Position numbers and translations under genes: made by a program
Shown here: in pieces, positions 7,073 through 15,604 of the stretch
Numbering within the stretch: the stretch's first letter is position 1
How the letters are laid out: each line of letters opens with the position of its first letter
Origin: Mycosarcoma maydis
Lineage: Eukaryota > Basidiomycota > Ustilaginomycetes > Ustilaginales
DNA: 64,000 bases
Direction: 5' to 3'
NCBI RefSeq assembly: GCF_000328475.2
Contig: NC_026478.1
Coordinates: 2,046,001-2,110,000, forward strand
Notes under the pieces: model-generated
The model's input: the letters and a program-made list of their open reading frames with translations, nothing else
Databases searched by the model: none
What the model was told of the DNA's origin: nothing

Positions 7073-9014
7073 GATTGTCACAAGGCCGACGGTTCCTGTT
7101 GCAGCTTTTGTTGTGAATAGTACGTGCCGATCTATGAATTGAGGTTGAAAACTGAAATACCGAAGGTTATAATGAGATGGTGCGAGTGCAAAATGCCAAA
7201 GTTGTTCGAGAAAGGGTGCTTATAGGTTGTCGTATATAGGTAATGATGTCAAGGCGTAAGTAGCATTGATGGGCGTTGAAGAGAGTCGTAAGGGTCGTTA
7301 TAAAATTGCAAATCCCTTCAAAGCATGGGCTCTGTCTTACGGGAGGGCACTACCGTTGCTCGGCAAGTCGTAAAAAGACGCAGCGTAAGAGCTATGGTGA
7401 GAAGTGATCTAGACAGCCTTTTTGTGCTACTCGTCGATGGTACTTTCCAAAGAGAGGAACCCACAATAAGCTGCTAGAACCAACACCTCGATAAAAGCCT
7501 GACTAAATGCGGGGGGAGAAGAAGTGTAAAACGTGAAATGTTGAAAGCGATGTAAAGTCGTAAAAGAGGATGGTTGATAGCAGACCAGGTGGTGGATCAA
7601 TGCAAGCAACTGAAGAAAGAAATGTTAGAAAAGGTGCTCCGAAACCAGTCAGAGATCACCAAAGTATCGTAAAGAAGTGCCTGCTCCAGCAGGTGGTGTC
7701 GTGAAGTCGTAAAGAGTATAAGATCGAATGCCAGCCGTAGAAGTAGAGAAGAAGTAAGAAGGGTAATGGCTGGCGACCAAAGTATACCGAAGGGAAAAAT
7801 CGTAGAAAGGAAAGGTCGAGTAGAAGAAGGAATAGTTGATGAAGGTGGTGGAGAATGAAACAGGGGAGAAGGGCGGGGAGATCAAGTAGAGACGTGCTAG
7901 GGCACCGGCAGCAGGTTTCGAGGCTTGCTTGAAGCAAAGGAATCAGGCGAGGCAGAGGCAAGATCTACACTTTAATAAAGCACAAAGAGAGGCAGGCCGG
8001 CACTGACGTCGATCCCTCTACCCAACTCCAGTTCAGCCACCTTGCGCCTACAAACGGTACACAGCAAAACTTGCACACAGACTCAAGTCCACGTACAAAC
8101 CCGATTTGTCATTATCCTTCCTTCCCACAGCGCCTCTGAGAAGCTTTTGAGTCGACCGAGCCATACTGTTCCACGGTCCCGGAACAGCCGAAGCGTGACA
8201 GGTCTGATGCAAACGACATTCAGTAAGAGTTGAGGAGCTCCGTACACTGTGGGCTGCAAACGGCAGCAGCTAGCAGAGCCCCGAAATACGTGCATCACAG
8301 AAAGTTGGATTCGCACATAGCAGCCACAGAAGACCTCGTGGATACGGAACCTGGCGGGCTGAGAGTGCGACATGTCTAACCTCAGAGGGCGAAACATAGA
8401 AATGTAGATGCTTAATGCAGACTACATAAGGCAGCTCGTGCGGAAATAGAAAAACACGAGGATCACTCACACACGATGTATGACCGTCCCGCTATTCGAC
8501 ACATGTCAAAAAATGGATTCGTGATTCGTTATTGGGTTTTTCTACGTGCTACTCTGTGACTCTCAAGTCTTTTTGGCTTTCGGCGGTTTGTGGCATCATG
8601 TACAGTAAAACTCACTTCGCTTAAACACAGCCGGTTTCTTCTGTCGTGCATGCTTCATTTCAACTACATTACCTTTGATGCAGCCGCAAGTTGGGAAATG
8701 ACGTTGAGCCCAGTCTTTCGTTTCTCAGTCCAATGTGAGTACGAAGGGTGCCGATTTTTAGTGGCTGTGTATCACGTGGTAAAAAAATCGGGACAAAGAA
8801 GTACGAGATCGGGTGATCTGGAGCCACGCGAAGGAGTGGAGGCTCGGAAAACGGAGAGAACACAAACACACTTACACTCAGCCTCAGGACTTTGACATTC
8901 ACGATTTAGTCTTGATCATATCTTCTTCGTCGTCTGTTCCATCTTCCACCTCGCCCTCTTCTGGTAGCAACCGACTTGACTCTACTACGATTCAAGCTTG
9001 CAATTCAAAGTGAA
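7073..9014. promoter_or_regulatory. Divergent intergenic region between the MFS-like gene and SAD1
   Basis: This region of about 1.9 kb lies between two genes read away from each other. The half next to the MFS-like gene is purine-rich on the plus strand, so it is pyrimidine-rich in that gene's leader. It holds five exact TCGTAA hexamers at 7286, 7368, 7558, 7667 and 7707. The SAD1 side has ATTCGTG motifs near 8517 and an ATTCACGATT motif at 8897. No gene is supported. Confidence 0.5.
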
Positions 9015-10943
9015 ATGGCGGATGTAACGGTGCCGGTAACGAAGCGACAACGAACAGCGCAAGGCGGAGGCGCAATCTTGCCTCCAGCGCCTCCTCCACC
9101 ACAGCAGGATGTACACACAACAAGAAATGTACTTTCGGAACCGCCTGCTTCGCCACCCCCACCACCTCCGCCAGACATGGCTTTCGATCAGGCTCAGAAC
9201 AGTGACATCGTGCCCCCACCACCTCCATCGAGCATGCCCCCACCACCTCCCCCCGACCAAGCGTTCGACGACCAAGAAGACGACGCTGACGTTCAGGATG
9301 CTGCATACTGGACGCGTTTGGCACAGTCTTCTTCTTCGGCGGTCGCCACTTCTTCTGAACCTTCATCATATGTAGCTACTCTATCGAATGACAGGAACGG
9401 CGCCGCAGTAGCAAAGAAAGGCAAGTCCGCCTTGTACCTTGATACGATCAACCGTGCGGTACTTGATTTCGATTTCGAAAAGCTCTGCTCGGTCTCGCTG
9501 TCGAACATCAACGTTTATGCATGCCTCGTCTGCGGGCGCTACTTCCAAGGGCGTGGACGTAATTCGTACGCCTACTTGCATAGCATTGACGACTCGCATC
9601 ATGTGTTTATGAACCTCGCTACGGCTCAGACATATATCTTGCCAGACAACTACGCGGTCCCAGAGGAGAACCAAGCCGCATTGCACGACATCAAATACCT
9701 CCTGAACCCTACTTTCACTCCCAAGACAATTCATGCCATCGAAGCGCGCCCGGCATATGATCTAAACGGAGACCAGTATTACCCAGGATTCGTAGGACTG
9801 AACAATGTGGGTAAGAACGATTATGTCAATGCGGTGATTCAGGCACTGGTGCACGTTCCTATGATACGGGACTACTTTTTATTGGGAAAGGAGGTTGAGG
9901 GAGAAGTTGGAGAAAAGAGCGAGTTGGTCAAGCGGTTTGGAAGTCTAGTGCGAAAAGTGTGGAACCCTCGAGCTTTCAAGGCACAAGTTTCACCACATGA
10001 ATTCCTGCAACAGGTGGCAGTGGTTTCGGGGAATCGGTTCAGAATCACGCACCAGTCGGATCCGGTCGAGTTTTTGGGCTGGCTGTTGAATTGCTTGCAT
10101 GCTGATCTGACGCGAGGGGGCAAGAATGGTGGCAAGAGGAAAAGGGGTGTTGGTGCTGGTGGAGAGAGCGTTATCAGTCGCTGCTTTCAAGGTGTTGTGC
10201 AGGTAGAATCGCAGCCGCTGTCTCGGTCCGACGAGACTGAAGCAGCCAGTTCAGCTTCGACAGTAGCTGCCGAGGCCGAGGGCATGCTGAAGGAGGCCAC
10301 CATTTCGGGGGAACAGGTGGACGAAAGTGGACGTGCACGATTCGACCCTTCTGTGCCAGTCGATAGACGCGATTCGCCCTTCTTTCTATTAGCGATGGAT
10401 CTTCCACCACCAGCTCCAGTGATCAGCTCGGAAGAAGGAGAGAATCTTGTTCCGCAGATCACCATTGGACAGGTGCTTTCCAGGTACGATGGGCAAAGTC
10501 TGCATGCGTCCAACGCCAAACTCACCCGCTACACGCTACGTCGTCTACCGCCATACCTCATCATTCACTTCCGTCGTTTCACCAAAAACAGCCTGGGTCA
10601 GGAAGAACGTAATCCCACGCTGGTCAATTTTCCCATTAAAGGTCTGGACGTCACCAAGCACGTTGCACTTTGCCGTGATACACAGCAGCAGCTCTCATCG
10701 CCAGACGCCGATTCAAAGCTATCAGAGATCTACGATCTCGTCGCCAACGTCGTTTACGACGCTGTACCAGGTACAGTGCGTCAAGGCGCCAGCTGGAAGT
10801 GTCAGGTACACACTAAGGGCACAGCGACGCCGGAGAAGCAAGCAGAAAAGTGGTTCGCCATCCAAGACTTGCTCGTCGAAGAGGTCAATCGCCAAATGAT
10901 CTTCTTGGGCGAAAGCTATTTGCAGATCTGGCAGAAACGCTGA
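9015..10943 (+). CDS. SAD1: Sad1/USP39-type tri-snRNP protein (catalytically dead ubiquitin-hydrolase fold)
   Basis: The protein has 642 residues. The frame opens earlier at a TTG, and the first ATG is at 9015. Residues 1-90 are Pro-rich (runs of PPPPP). A ZnF-UBP domain follows at about 150-215, with CLVCGRYFQG and later His residues. A USP-like domain runs from about 260 to the end, closing with GESYLQIWQKR. In active USPs the Cys box reads roughly GLxNTCYMN; here it is GLNNVGKNDY, so the nucleophilic Cys is absent. This matches the Sad1/USP39 family, which assists assembly of the U4/U6.U5 tri-snRNP in the spliceosome and is not a protease. It probably acts in the nucleus. The identification is firm. 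Confidence 0.95.
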   Translation: MADVTVPVTKRQRTAQGGGAILPPAPPPPQQDVHTTRNVLSEPPASPPPPPPPDMAFDQAQNSDIVPPPPPSSMPPPPPPDQAFDDQEDDADVQDAAYWTRLAQSSSSAVATSSEPSSYVATLSNDRNGAAVAKKGKSALYLDTINRAVLDFDFEKLCSVSLSNINVYACLVCGRYFQGRGRNSYAYLHSIDDSHHVFMNLATAQTYILPDNYAVPEENQAALHDIKYLLNPTFTPKTIHAIEARPAYDLNGDQYYPGFVGLNNVGKNDYVNAVIQALVHVPMIRDYFLLGKEVEGEVGEKSELVKRFGSLVRKVWNPRAFKAQVSPHEFLQQVAVVSGNRFRITHQSDPVEFLGWLLNCLHADLTRGGKNGGKRKRGVGAGGESVISRCFQGVVQVESQPLSRSDETEAASSASTVAAEAEGMLKEATISGEQVDESGRARFDPSVPVDRRDSPFFLLAMDLPPPAPVISSEEGENLVPQITIGQVLSRYDGQSLHASNAKLTRYTLRRLPPYLIIHFRRFTKNSLGQEERNPTLVNFPIKGLDVTKHVALCRDTQQQLSSPDADSKLSEIYDLVANVVYDAVPGTVRQGASWKCQVHTKGTATPEKQAEKWFAIQDLLVEEVNRQMIFLGESYLQIWQKR

Positions 10944-11321
10944 CCCAGGTGAGAAATCGACGCCATCAATTCACGAATCCCACACACACAGAACATCCCC
11001 GACAAAACCCGNNNNNNNNNNNNNNNNNNNNNNNNNNNNNNNNNNNNNNNNNNNNNNNNNNNNNNNNNNNNNNNNNNNNNNNNNNNNNNNNNNNNNNNNN
11101 NNNNNNNNNNNACAGCAGTTGAAATGGGACGAGATACAATGACAAGATACGACTGTTGAAGTGATCATTAGGGATATACCAGAGACTGAAACGCATGAGA
11201 AAAGAGTACGATGGAAAAAAGAAGAGATGGCGATGTGTGGAATCGCAAAGCACCGATGAAGGAAAAGAGAGTCAGCAGGCACAGACGGCAGTGACAGAGT
11301 GTACGCTGCTGATGCGATGAG
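10944..11321. other. Convergent intergenic region with an assembly gap
   Basis: This is the 3' flank shared by SAD1 and the antizyme gene. It includes 100 unknown bases, so content and true length are uncertain. No gene is visible in the known parts. Confidence 0.7.
11012..11111. other. Assembly gap of 100 N
   Basis: There are exactly 100 consecutive N. The round number suggests a scaffold gap of unknown size, not a measured one. It lies between two gene ends and breaks no recognised reading frame. Confidence 0.98.
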
Positions 11322-12855
11322 CTAAAGCTCAATGGCGACAAGCACAAGGCCGTTCTGAAGCTGCAAACCCGAGATGGGGTCGGTCTCTGGCAGATTGGCA
11401 TGTCCACCTCCGAGCTGATCCGATTCTTTAGCAGCAGCAACAAGTGCACCGCCAACGTAGCAGAGACCATGGAGGACCGAGGCAAAGTCACGCATTGCCT
11501 TGTTGAGACAGACCATGACCGAGTCACATCCAAGCTTGTCGCTTGCAGCATCGAGCACTGCCAGCACCTGTTCTCTCAGCAAGGTAGCGTCGACGACGGA
11601 TGGCATGCTAACATAGAGCGTACGCTGCGAGTCAGCCGAGCTGTCGCTGCTGCTCGTAGAGCTGATCGAGCTGGATGGCTGAGTAGGAGCGATTGCGCCG
11701 GATTTGATCACAGCGCCACTCCAACCAGGGCTGATCAGTTCCACACCAGCATCCTCGACTGAGAGATCGCCAGGGACGTTTGCAAAGATGCGATGCAAAA
11801 ATGCATGGGCAGACTTTTGTGCATGGTGGCGGACGTCGTTGTCGGGACTGATTTCAGGAGTGGCAGGCATGAGCTCGCCCCTCTGCGTAGCGATACTCGA
11901 GACGTTGGCCGATTCGGGTCCGAGCGCATGTTGCGGATTGGTGCGATCCGGTGCCGAAGAAAGGAGGAGCGACTGCGCTGCTTGAACGAGCTGATCGATG
12001 GTCGCCTGTGAGGTGTCGTCCGAGAAGTCGGATTCGGCAACGGATTCCAACTCGCTGTCACAAGGGGTCTGGCCGGTATAGATGACATCGGTCGAGATGT
12101 CCGCATCGCGCGCATGGGCAGGTAGAGGGCGGCTCCAGCTGCGTGGAGCTCGCTCGTGGACATCAAAGTGCCTTGAAGGTGAAGGACGCTGTGACTGAGG
12201 TAAACGTCCCAATTCGCCCAAGGATGGCAATCGAACGGGGGCAAGGCCAGGCGAGTGTGGCGGGGTATCGGGGGGAGAGTCGGGAAGCTGTGCAGCGGTG
12301 ACATTTCGGTGCGCATTGTTCGAGAGCGCCGGGATGGTGGCAGGATGAGCTGCACGGAAGATAGGAACAGCAACGGCCGGGGCTGGCACACCGCTGCTGT
12401 ACGGACGGTGCCAGCTGGAGCGTAGATTGGACTGCTGCTGGTGAGCGAGCGCATTTGAGGTTGAATTTGGATTAGGCGTCGATGCGGTGGTCGCACTGGG
12501 ACGAGCGGCAACGACGTTGGCGTCAGAAGAGGAAAGGGTGATAGAAGTAGACGTGGAAGCTTGCTGCGAAGCGACCCCTCTCACAGGTGCACTTCGACCT
12601 GGACTCTGCAGGGACGAGTTGTTGTATCCAGGCATTTCTGCTTTGAGGACGTCAGGACCACCACTTGACCACGGTGCTCAACGTGGTGGACTGCTGCTGG
12701 CCACGAGGGTAGCCAGCAGCAGCAGCAGCAGCAGCAGCATTATTGGTGTTGGTGAGAGCATGGTTGCGCGAGTAAGGAACCCCATCGGAGCCAGCACCTG
12801 CGCTAAAGGAGCTGACGGGGGACAAATGGGGTTGATTCAGATTATCGGTGGTCAT
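11322..12855 (-). CDS. OAZ1: Ornithine decarboxylase antizyme, expressed by +1 programmed frameshift
   Basis: Antizyme binds ornithine decarboxylase monomers, sends them to the proteasome and restrains polyamine uptake. Frame 1 starts at ATG 12855 and has 67 codons, ending with TCC (12657-12655) and then TGA (12654-12652). Skipping the T at 12654 continues as GAC GTC CTC into the long frame to TAG at 11322, giving about 510 residues in total. The last ~150 residues carry the antizyme domain: an LYVSMP strand, then LAVLDAASDKLGCDSVMVCL, an FASVLHGL helix and a closing GLVLVAIEL strand. Before this lies a long Ser/Pro-rich disordered part, so the protein is about twice the length of animal antizymes. 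Frame 1 contains an eight-Ala run. Shifting at TCC TGA is the established antizyme mechanism and is stimulated by polyamines. Upstream starts in frame 1 are possible but less likely. Confidence 0.93.
12652..12657 (-). promoter_or_regulatory. Antizyme +1 ribosomal frameshift site TCC TGA
   Basis: Read on the minus strand, the end of frame 1 is TGG TGG TCC TGA C. TCC followed by TGA is the classical antizyme shift site. A +1 move gives Ser-Asp and enters the antizyme-domain frame six codons before its first internal Met (12635). A hairpin 5' of the site is possible at 12687-12668. Confidence 0.93.
12715..12738 (-). repeat. Trinucleotide repeat (GCT)8 encoding Ala8 in antizyme frame 1
   Basis: There are eight perfect AGC units on the plus strand, read as GCT on the minus strand. 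They lie about 20 codons before the frameshift site. Length change in steps of three would keep the frame. Confidence 0.9.
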
Positions 12856-13789
12856 TTTTATGAAGCGCAGGCGAACAGCTTGGCGGTATAAGTGGAGAAA
12901 AGTACAGAGAGCCGATTGACGTTGACAGATGTCTAGTCGAGTATGCTGCGAGCGGCAAGAAAGGAGGTAAAGCGTTGAAGATAAGATGGAGTGCAAATGA
13001 TGGAAAGTAGCAAGGCGAAAAGGACGCTTTGAGATAGCTCTCCAAGCAGGTCACGAGTCGTGAGTTGGGGATAACAACGAATGTCGACCACGAGCACCGA
13101 GCGTGGAGCACAGAGCGGAGCCATTCACGATTCACGATTCATGATTTATCATTCACGATTCACATTCAGTCATCGCAGCCACCAAGCTCAGCAACGCAGC
13201 CGAGTCCGTGAGTGTCGAGACTGGAGAGACCCTTTTGGCAAGGGAGAATTAGAATTTAGATTCGTGATTTTGGAGCAGCGAACGGCGGGACTTGTGCAAT
13301 GTGCGTCAAATCCGCCTACAACCTCAGTCACTCAGTCAAGCGTAATCGTGGCAGATGGCGACAGATGGGGGCGAATTCCAAAGAAAACTTGTTCCCCCCT
13401 GAACATATTCCAGCCAGGGCCAAAAAAAAGGTTGGACGAAGGAATAGACTGACTGCTTTTCTGCCTGAAGATTGGTTGTGAAGATTGGTTGTTTTTTAAG
13501 ACTCGCCTGTTGAACAGCTCACTCATCGAATTTCTCTCAATTCAAATGTCTTAACGAGACTGCTTGACGAGATGGCGTCATCTGCTATCACGAACTCTCG
13601 GACGAAAAAAAACTCCAAGCATCTGCAAGCTTTTAGCATTGGTGATTCAGGGTCCAGCTATGCTCCACCTCGGCCGCCCAGAGTCACTCTTGACTGACTT
13701 GCTACGCCCAGTTTCAATGCATCTGACCTTTAGACGTTATACTTGTGCAACCACCACATGAACGACTGTTTTGGGCTGACTAACGATTG
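12856..13789. promoter_or_regulatory. Divergent intergenic region between antizyme and ESS2
   Basis: Genes on both sides are read outwards. The region holds a dense (ATTCACG)n-type array at 13123-13164 and a GTCACGAGTCGTGAGT stretch near 13051. No further gene is supported. The antizyme leader presumably lies in the left part. Confidence 0.5.
13123..13164. repeat. ATTCACG heptamer array (degenerate)
   Basis: It reads ATTCACG, ATTCACG, ATTCATG, then a spacer and another ATTCACG. It is a member of the TCACG intergenic motif family. Confidence 0.8.
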
Positions 13790-15604
13790 ATGCCGCTGCG
13801 CAAAGAACCGCCAACGCCTCGCTCAGCCGCTGTCAATGCTCGCCTCGATTCGAACAACGATGTGGGCCCGTCGAGGTCAGGTCTAGCACCCTTGATCCCA
13901 TTCAAGCCGGGACAGACGTCGTTGCGTAAACAAGCAATCTTGACGGAAGAAGAGTACACTTGCGCCTTATCCTCGATCATCAAGCGCGACTTCTTCCCGG
14001 ACCTCGATCGGATCACGGCTGAAAACGAGTATCTGGCTGCGGTGGAGGCAGAGGAGCCGGCGCGCATACGAATCGCCCTGGATCGCTTGCTGCGACTGGA
14101 CGGGCGGACGAATGCTAGTCCAGCACCACAGCGAGCTAGCAAGCGGAGCCGCAATCATCTGTCGAGAGCTTCAGCAGCGGCAAGGAACGACAGTGGTGAA
14201 TGGGACAATACTCCGATCGCCTTTGGCTCGTCTTCCGAGGTGTTCGATCCGACCTTCACGCCTGCCGAATCAACCATATGGCTGGATCACCAAGGTGAAC
14301 CTCAGCACGAAGCCGAAGCCGAGGCCGCACCCGCTTCAGGTATCCATCCAGATCTCGACCTCTCCTTGGCCCATTTCCAGTCGCGCTACACCTCGGAAGA
14401 CAATGCGAGCTTCTCACAGCTTCTCGACCGGGACAACGAGCTACGCAAACGTAAACACGCCCATCTCTTTGCACATGAAGCAGCATCCGGAAAGCGTCGC
14501 CAACAGCTGATAGATGCGGAGAGGCGCGATGCAGAAAGGGGCAAACGACTGATGCTAGAGGCGAGCCCAGATGATTCGAACATGTCGGAAGAGGCGACAG
14601 AAATGCTCTTGATCGAGGGTAGCGATGCAAAGGTAGAGGAGAAAAGCGCCACGGCGGCGGCGGTGACGGTGACAGGACAGAGGCCGGAAACCAGCAGTGA
14701 AAAGGATCCGATGGACGATCTCGTCCTCGTTTGCGAGCCACGACAAGACGATCGACGGACAGCAAGCGGTCTGCATCGCTGGAAATACACGGCGCGCAAC
14801 GCGCTCATGTTCGGTGCAGATGCCAATGAGTCATATCTGCATGCTCGGCCTCTCGGTGTCACTGCCGATCACGAGGCGTCGAGACCACAAACAAATTTTA
14901 CAGCGCTTCGGCTTGGCGAACAATCCAACTCTCACACAGCAGTACGCCACGTCGACGCGCCGCAGAGTGAAGCCGGATGGTGTGCTTCCACTTCTCGCCT
15001 CGACGCTGCCATTCAACGCGGTCGAGCTGGGTCGTTTACCTCTCCGGTAGCTTCTGCCTCCGGTGACGAAACGCCCAAAGTTAACGGCTACGGCTTTGTG
15101 ACGCCCTACTCGACACCCCAGTCTGGCAACAGCCAGTCCGTGGACGGTGAGATGCATTTACGTGTCTACAATGCGATCAAACGCTCGCGTCAGCACCATG
15201 TAACGGCATCCACCAGCATCGACGATATCGCTGCGCGTGCATGTGGATTTCAACTGCCTCGGTTGGATAAACGCGAACAGCTCGCAGAGAAACTCACCAG
15301 TACGCCTAAGCTGAAGCGAGCGGCAGAGCGCGCGTCGACGCCATACGGACAGGCGAGGTATACTGGATTGACGCGTTTGAGAACGAGTGCATTCGGCAGA
15401 TCGCCACAGAAGATGCGCGACAAAGTGGGAGGTCTCACGCCAGCGGCAAAGGCTCTGTTGGATAGAAGCACACGTGGTCTCACCCCTGCGTCGGCTCGAC
15501 AACGCGTAGCTAGCCCAATTGCATCGCAGCGCCATGATGCTAACACAGCAAAATCGTTAGGAGACAGAAGCTGGACCCCTACATCTCAACGCACACGACA
15601 TTGA
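13790..15604 (+). CDS. ESS2: Ess2/DGCR14-family nuclear splicing protein
   Basis: The protein has 604 residues from the ATG at 13790; the TTG just before it is not needed. The N-terminal family signature is at about residues 45-85: a KQAILTEEEYTCALSSII helix, then KRDFFPDLDRI and an ENEYL helix. Charged helical segments follow around 200-260 (SFSQLLDRDNELRKRKHAHLF). The conserved TARNALMF/GADA patch is near 330-345, and the C-terminal STPYG and LTPAAKALLDR repeats are near 520-590. Ess2 (Bis1 in fission yeast, DGCR14 in mammals) is a nuclear protein that travels with late spliceosomal complexes. It stands back to back with antizyme and lies in the same stretch as Sad1, another splicing factor. 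No intron is needed. Confidence 0.92.
   Translation: MPLRKEPPTPRSAAVNARLDSNNDVGPSRSGLAPLIPFKPGQTSLRKQAILTEEEYTCALSSIIKRDFFPDLDRITAENEYLAAVEAEEPARIRIALDRLLRLDGRTNASPAPQRASKRSRNHLSRASAAARNDSGEWDNTPIAFGSSSEVFDPTFTPAESTIWLDHQGEPQHEAEAEAAPASGIHPDLDLSLAHFQSRYTSEDNASFSQLLDRDNELRKRKHAHLFAHEAASGKRRQQLIDAERRDAERGKRLMLEASPDDSNMSEEATEMLLIEGSDAKVEEKSATAAAVTVTGQRPETSSEKDPMDDLVLVCEPRQDDRRTASGLHRWKYTARNALMFGADANESYLHARPLGVTADHEASRPQTNFTALRLGEQSNSHTAVRHVDAPQSEAGWCASTSRLDAAIQRGRAGSFTSPVASASGDETPKVNGYGFVTPYSTPQSGNSQSVDGEMHLRVYNAIKRSRQHHVTASTSIDDIAARACGFQLPRLDKREQLAEKLTSTPKLKRAAERASTPYGQARYTGLTRLRTSAFGRSPQKMRDKVGGLTPAAKALLDRSTRGLTPASARQRVASPIASQRHDANTAKSLGDRSWTPTSQRTRH

What the first reader, a model, noticed from the sequence alone, without database searches (positions are those of the whole stretch)
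11322..12855. Antizyme gene hidden across two frames, with a TCC TGA +1 frameshift
Frame 1 (ATG 12855) ends at TCC TGA (12657-12652). A +1 shift enters the frame that encodes the antizyme domain with no intervening stop. Known for the family: antizymes use +1 shifting at TCC TGA, stimulated by polyamines. Seen here: the exact site, the matching frames and the C-terminal domain. A normal gene caller would report only the downstream frame from Met 12635, or two unrelated genes. The protein is about 510 residues, about twice the length of animal antizymes.
Basis: partly seen in the sequence, partly recalled or inferred. Interest (0 to 1): 0.8.

Follow-up and report, generated by a model that had tools for sequence, protein, structure and literature searches.

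The report
Smut-fungus antizyme with +1 frameshift

Summary
Confirmed, and essentially ordinary. On the minus strand a 67-codon ORF1 (ATG 12855) ends at TCC TGA (12657-12652). A +1 step enters an open frame of 443 codons ending at 11322; the product would be 510 residues. ORF2 matches Pfam ODC_AZ (E 1.9e-10), the only such match in the genome. Other smut fungi keep both frames. The 3' RNA element published for Basidiomycota antizymes, Ustilaginomycotina included (PMC4505036), is present in layout, though not unusually stable. An intron (12669-12606) that would remove the site, matching two public gene models, is possible on paper, but its acceptor is not conserved. Possibly new is a conserved smut ORF1 tail, QQSTTLSTVVKWWS, about where Agaricomycetes carry a nascent-peptide stimulator. 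Thecaphora has Thr, not Ser, as the last ORF1 residue. I had no ribosome, RNA-seq or peptide data and no DNA of other smuts, so the shift itself is inferred.

The parts
12652..12855 (-). ORF1, 67 codons plus TGA; ends QQSTTLSTVVKWWS*
   Evidence: homologues P0031-P0034
12652..12657 (-). shift site TCC TGA (followed by C)
   Evidence: TGGTGGTCCTGAC found once in the genome
12652..12677 (-). 26-base overlap in which ORF1 and the +1 frame are both open
12655..12696 (-). last 14 codons of ORF1, conserved tail QQSTTLSTVVKWWS: candidate smut-specific 5' stimulator
   Evidence: alignment A3; codons inferred for U. trichophora; function inferred
12658..12664 (-). GTGGTGG, the position of 'module A' (6-7 nt abutting the shift site)
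   Evidence: position as described in PMC4505036 (passages); sequence; function inferred
11322..12653 (-). ORF2 as entered by +1 shift, 443 codons plus stop
11427..11636 (-). antizyme domain PF02100 (ODC_AZ)
   Evidence: E 1.9e-10; genome search
12634..12637 (-). AAAU abutting stem 1 (supplies the first two bases of the AUG at 12635 that gene callers use)
   Evidence: element described in PMC4505036
12597..12633 (-). 3' stem-loop 1, starting at the 19th base after UGA
12567..12596 (-). 3' stem-loop 2, directly adjacent, 7-nt loop UGUGAGA at 12584-12578
12606..12669 (-). rival reading: 64-base GTCAAG...CTGCAG 'intron' that would join the frames
   Evidence: equivalent, at protein level, to gene models P0003 and P0023

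Best explanation
This is the ornithine decarboxylase antizyme gene (one copy found) of a smut fungus, probably Ustilago maydis. Ribosomes translate ORF1 to UCC UGA. When free polyamines are high, a fraction skip the U of UGA and read GAC in the +1 frame, making a 510-residue antizyme. Antizyme then binds ornithine decarboxylase, one copy of which was found in this genome, and sends it to the proteasome, which lowers polyamines. Shown here: the two frames, the site, the antizyme domain, the layout of the 3' double stem-loop, and conservation of both frames in relatives' proteins. Inferred from the family: the shift itself, its polyamine dependence and ODC degradation.
For: ODC_AZ domain E 1.9e-10 in ORF2, one match in the genome; ODC gene present (PF02784 E 2.4e-75; human ODC chain 1d7k E 3.3e-122). 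ORF1 by itself is found in other contigs (P0033, E 9.3e-17; P0034, E 2.5e-15); the 4 ORF1-only proteins, of which P0031 is this sequence and P0032 nearly so, all end directly after WW[S/T]. ORF1 start region and tail recur inside gene models of S. reilianum, K. brasiliensis, T. cyperi and V. palustris. U. trichophora P0007 reads the ORF2 frame through the overlap, and back-inference allows the same codons as here at 15 of the 16 positions nearest the junction, TGA included; the exception is a forced Ser to Ala. The layout of the published 3' element is matched: the strict form is reached by 19 of 5000 synonymous recodings and 0 of 2000 dinucleotide shuffles, a looser form by 58 of 5000 and 5 of 2000. 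Published: UCC_UGA is the site of most antizymes (PMC5009743, passages); the 3' structure in Ustilaginomycotina (PMC4505036).
Against: Folding energy of the 3' element is not unusual (z -0.30, 67 of 200 shuffles fold as well; 1993 of 5000 synonymous recodings and 594 of 2000 shuffles do). Rfam gave no meaningful match in 12450-12900. Antizyme chains of the PDB were hit only at E 0.5-0.86 by single-sequence search, and the structure prediction failed. T. frezii ORF1 ends in Thr, not Ser. Two relatives' gene models splice the site out (P0003, P0023). V. palustris P0028 shows extra residues between WWS and DVIKAEMPG, which I could not explain. No DNA of relatives was read, so TCC TGA in them is inferred from proteins.
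Confidence: 0.93

Rival explanations
1. The frames are joined by a 64-base intron (12669-12606, GTCAAG...CTGCAG) and no shift is needed.
For: The junction keeps an open frame and a CTGAC branch-like sequence lies inside. The S. reilianum (P0003) and T. cyperi (P0023) models read ...TLSTV followed by N or H and PGRSAPV, the equivalent junction.
Against: Of the 16 homologue rows with an MPG...PGR stretch (own-species P0001 included), 11 have a residue whose codon could supply the AG acceptor at that place and 5 do not. CTGAC begins at the 15th base of the intron, very close to the donor. 71 GT-AG combinations of 40-400 bases between 12855 and 12300 would join the frames, so one that does is weak evidence. 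The intron would delete the end of ORF1, AAAU and one arm of stem 1. U. trichophora P0007 has DVLKAEMPG and V. palustris P0028 DVIKAEMPG, so the stretch is kept as coding sequence there.
Confidence: 0.04
2. ORF2 starts on its own at Met 12635, by leaky scanning or re-initiation after ORF1, giving two separate proteins.
For: Gene pipelines annotate it so. Of the 18 homologues that reach PGR[S/R][A/Q]PV, 16 have MPG before it; the other 2 (P0003, P0023) are spliced models.
Against: The Met overlaps AAAU, which PMC4505036 reports as absolutely conserved in sequences with the structure. The ORF1 tail and overlap recur in relatives, which re-initiation does not need. In the family the shift is required for functional antizyme.
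Confidence: 0.02
3. The ribosome shifts -2 rather than +1 at the same site; the product gains one residue (Ser-Pro-Asp).
For: -2 and +1 lead to the same frame; -2 use at antizyme sites in some heterologous tests is recalled, not read here.
Against: Antizyme shifting is described as +1 in PMC4505036 and PMC5009743.
Confidence: 0.01

Closest known systems
Basidiomycota antizyme mRNAs, Ustilaginomycotina branch (PMC4505036, J Biol Chem 2015; read: introduction, Results parts 1-2 of 3; elsewhere passages only)
   Same: Two overlapping frames, +1 shift at the ORF1 stop, AAAU abutting two adjacent stem-loops about 19 nt downstream, second loop of 7 nt, UGG at codon -2 named as a natural variant in some mRNAs outside Agaricomycetes.
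   Different: No difference found in what I could test. Whether this species is among their 54 aligned sequences I could not see, because the figure and supplement are not held.
Agaricomycete antizymes (Coprinopsis cinerea, PMC4505036; Ganoderma lucidum, PMC9604110, passages)
   Same: Same gene, same kind of 3' element, a conserved ORF1 stretch just before the site.
   Different: Site UUU_UGA there, UCC_UGA here. The paper found no amino-acid similarity near the site in species outside Agaricomycotina. Ganoderma protein 333 aa, here 510.
Animal antizyme 1
   Same: UCC_UGA and the ODC_AZ domain; UGG before the site (UGG two codons 5' of the antizyme site is called strongly conserved in PMC5009743).
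   Different: Much shorter protein (length recalled). mRNA pseudoknots are strongly represented among antizyme 3' signals; here two adjacent hairpins.

Membership tests
ornithine decarboxylase antizyme | ODC_AZ domain above curated cut-off | tested here: met
   41.1 bits against 24.2; 26 of 26 proteins of A2 match at E 0.001 or better
ornithine decarboxylase antizyme | two overlapping frames with a stop codon between, second frame +1 | tested here: met
   T. frezii has ORF1 and ORF2 as proteins with consecutive tags, P0034/P0025
ornithine decarboxylase antizyme | shift site of family form (UCC_UGA in most) | tested here: met
   12657-12652; family form from PMC5009743 (passage)
ornithine decarboxylase antizyme | target enzyme ODC in the same genome | tested here: met
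ornithine decarboxylase antizyme | antizyme three-dimensional fold | not tested
ornithine decarboxylase antizyme | polyamine-dependent +1 shifting and ODC degradation | not testable with these tools
   needs reporter and protein assays
Basidiomycota antizyme 3' stimulator | AAAU abutting stem 1, two directly adjacent stem-loops about 19 nt after the site | tested here: met
   layout only, not energetically exceptional (z -0.30)
Basidiomycota antizyme 3' stimulator | 7-nt loop 2 with six conserved bases | tested here: inconclusive
   loop of 7 (UGUGAGA) present; the conserved letters are in a figure that is not held
Agaricomycete nascent-peptide stimulator | its conserved ORF1 peptide at codons -14 to -4 | tested here: inconclusive
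   a conserved smut tail sits there, but the Agaricomycete peptide letters were not seen, so I compared nothing; the paper reports no similarity outside Agaricomycotina

The most novel reading that the evidence does not exclude
Smut fungi have evolved their own 5' frameshift stimulator: the last 14 codons of ORF1 (QQSTTLSTVVKWWS) act as a nascent peptide in the exit tunnel, and/or as an mRNA signal, to set polyamine-responsive shifting. It would be a second, independent peptide stimulator in the place where Agaricomycetes carry theirs. In Thecaphora the same tail works with a Thr shift codon.
Probability: 0.25. Interest if true: 0.45.

Novelty: already known. Interest (0 to 1): 0.18.

Why it matters
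It shows that raw sequence reading can recover a recoded gene that annotation pipelines cut short, split or splice; among the 30 homologues and the ORF1 protein there are examples of all three. If the conserved ORF1 tail proves to be a nascent-peptide signal, it would give a second lineage in which to test how ribosomes sense polyamines. [quoted passage not shown]

Tried and rejected
Pseudogene or sequencing error: rejected, because relatives show the same two frames (P0033, P0034/P0025, inferred U. trichophora). Energetic significance of the 3' RNA: not found; only its layout is unusual, and I set the layout test after seeing the paper and the native fold. Rfam, 12450-12900 only, gave one sub-threshold miRNA match at E 2. 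Papers: PMC1874602, the survey of close to 300 antizymes, is not held, so that U. maydis is in it is recollection. PMC2375905 (antizyme finder) has no passage on the terms I sought. Full-text searches for antizyme with Thecaphora and with Sporisorium found 0 papers each; antizyme with Ustilago found 10, of which I opened four. Synonymous against non-synonymous counting in ORF1 was not done because I had no DNA of other smuts: the genome has no relatives held, metagenome scans were capped at 0, and I did not scan the viral and prokaryote collections. The substitute was back-inference from one protein, P0007: if the peptide is kept, the degenerate third bases at S-1, V-5, V-6, T-7, T-10, T-11 and S-12 are the same as here. 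That fits constraint on RNA as well as on peptide and does not favour a pure peptide signal.

Full report
Observation. On the minus strand ORF1 runs from ATG 12855 to TGA 12654-12652 and is 67 codons. The codon before the stop is TCC and the base after it is C. The +1 frame, read from GAC at 12653, is open for 443 codons to 11322, so the product would have 510 residues with Ser67-Asp68 at the junction. The +1 frame is closed just upstream of 12677, so any change of frame must fall within 26 bases. ATG 12855 is the first ATG in its open frame (in-frame stop just upstream of 13050), with A at -3. The start region recurs in relatives.

Chance. Long open frames past a stop are common here: 203 ATG ORFs of at least 60 codons give 34 shift readings open for 300 or more codons, 4 of them +1. 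Only this one has TCC TGA. TGGTGGTCCTGAC was found once in the genome (reversed-pattern control 2).

Identity. ORF2 carries ODC_AZ at E 1.9e-10, residues 340-409 of 443. It is the only match in the genome of 19,664,356 bases in 27 contigs. The genome also has an ornithine decarboxylase (PF02784 E 2.4e-75; human ODC chain E 3.3e-122). Thirty homologues were found among the 7994 candidates scored; those that carry an organism name are smut fungi and their yeast-like kin (that kinship is recalled). All 26 proteins of alignment A2, this one and 25 of the 30, match ODC_AZ. Against solved structures a single-sequence search reaches antizyme chains only at E 0.5-0.86, and no structure could be predicted, so the fold rests on the Pfam profile.

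Relatives at the junction. ORF1 alone is found as a protein in four clusters: P0031 (this sequence), P0032 (one alanine fewer), P0033 and, with the profile, P0034. P0034 (ACQY0O_007798) and P0025 (ACQY0O_007797) of Thecaphora frezii have consecutive tags and the same longest-contig length, 1,746,187. P0034 ends WWT instead of WWS, so the shift codon seems to be a Thr codon in that lineage. Thirteen of the 30 ORF2 homologues begin at the MPG Met. P0003, P0021, P0023 and P0028 hold ORF1 and ORF2 pieces in one chain. P0007 (U. trichophora) reads the ORF2 frame upstream through the overlap: PPWSSGGPDVLKAEMPG. Because ORF2 codon positions 1-2 are ORF1 positions 2-3, that protein constrains ORF1. 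It is compatible with the codons found here at 15 of the 16 positions nearest the junction, including TCC and TGA; the exception is Ser to Ala at -8. This is compatibility, not proof, since the first base of each ORF1 codon is often free.

3' RNA element. PMC4505036 (sections read) describes in Basidiomycota antizyme mRNAs, explicitly including Ustilaginomycotina, AAAU abutting stem 1, two adjacent stem-loops starting 19 nucleotides downstream, and a 7-nt loop 2 with six invariant bases. Here AAAU is at 12637-12634, stem-loop 1 at 12633-12597 (first base the 19th after UGA), and stem-loop 2 directly adjacent at 12596-12567 with a 7-base loop. The fold energy is not special (z -0.30; 1993 of 5000 synonymous recodings and 594 of 2000 shuffles as stable). 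The strict layout occurs in 19 of 5000 synonymous recodings and 0 of 2000 dinucleotide shuffles, a looser one in 58 and 5. I fixed the layout from the paper and the native fold, so this is a check, not an independent discovery. The AUG that gene callers take as start overlaps AAAU.

Intron rival. A 64-base GTCAAG...CTGCAG stretch (12669-12606) would join the frames, and the S. reilianum and T. cyperi models look equivalent at protein level. But 71 GT-AG combinations of 40-400 bases would join the frames here. The acceptor place has a residue whose codon could end in AG in 11 of 16 rows and not in 5 of 16. The branch-like CTGAC begins at base 15 of the intron. The stretch contains the end of the tail, the site, AAAU and one stem arm. 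I rate it at 0.04.

What may be new. The ORF1 tail QQSTTLSTVVKWWS is nearly unchanged in this sequence, Sporisorium, Kalmanozyma, Testicularia, Violaceomyces (QQSSTLGTVVKWWS) and Thecaphora (QQSTTFGSVVKWWT), while the middle of ORF1 varies in length and sequence (eight rows, three of them ending before WW because the gene models leave the frame there). Against a special role of the tail, the first half of ORF1 (around DGVP) is also conserved, so ORF1 may simply be a conserved protein segment. The tail occupies about the place of the Agaricomycete peptide stimulator (codons 14 to 4 before the site). The paper says sequences outside Agaricomycotina lack amino-acid similarity near the site and left them out. 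I found no text on a smut tail in what I opened after the searches, but figures and supplements were not readable. Back-inference from P0007 shows no third-base change if the peptide is kept, so RNA-level constraint is at least as likely. Probability that the novel reading holds: about 0.25.

Verdict. A correct and well-argued reading of a known kind of gene in a group where the mechanism is already described; low interest overall, with one modest open question.

Noticed in passing
P0034 (Thecaphora frezii): ORF1 ends WWT rather than WWS: the shift codon seems to have changed to a Thr codon; its DNA was not seen.
   Followed up: partly
   Followed up: no
window 12634-12637: The Met used as start by gene callers overlaps the conserved AAAU RNA element.
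   Followed up: partly
window 11012-11111: Run of 100 N downstream of the antizyme stop.
   Followed up: no
window 8976-10943: Plus-strand gene with zf-UBP and UCH domains, convergent with the antizyme.
   Followed up: partly
window 13787-15604: Plus-strand Es2 nuclear protein gene (PF09751, E 6.7e-92), divergent from the antizyme.
   Followed up: partly
window 12933-13124: A 63-codon upstream ATG ORF; four shorter ones lie at 13125-13173; transcription start unknown.
   Followed up: no
ORF2 protein, LPDSPPDTPPHSP and MPATPEISPDNDVRHHAQKSAHxFLxRIF: Strongly conserved motifs outside the ODC_AZ match, looking like proline-directed phosphorylation sites (my guess); may explain part of the extra length.
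   Followed up: no
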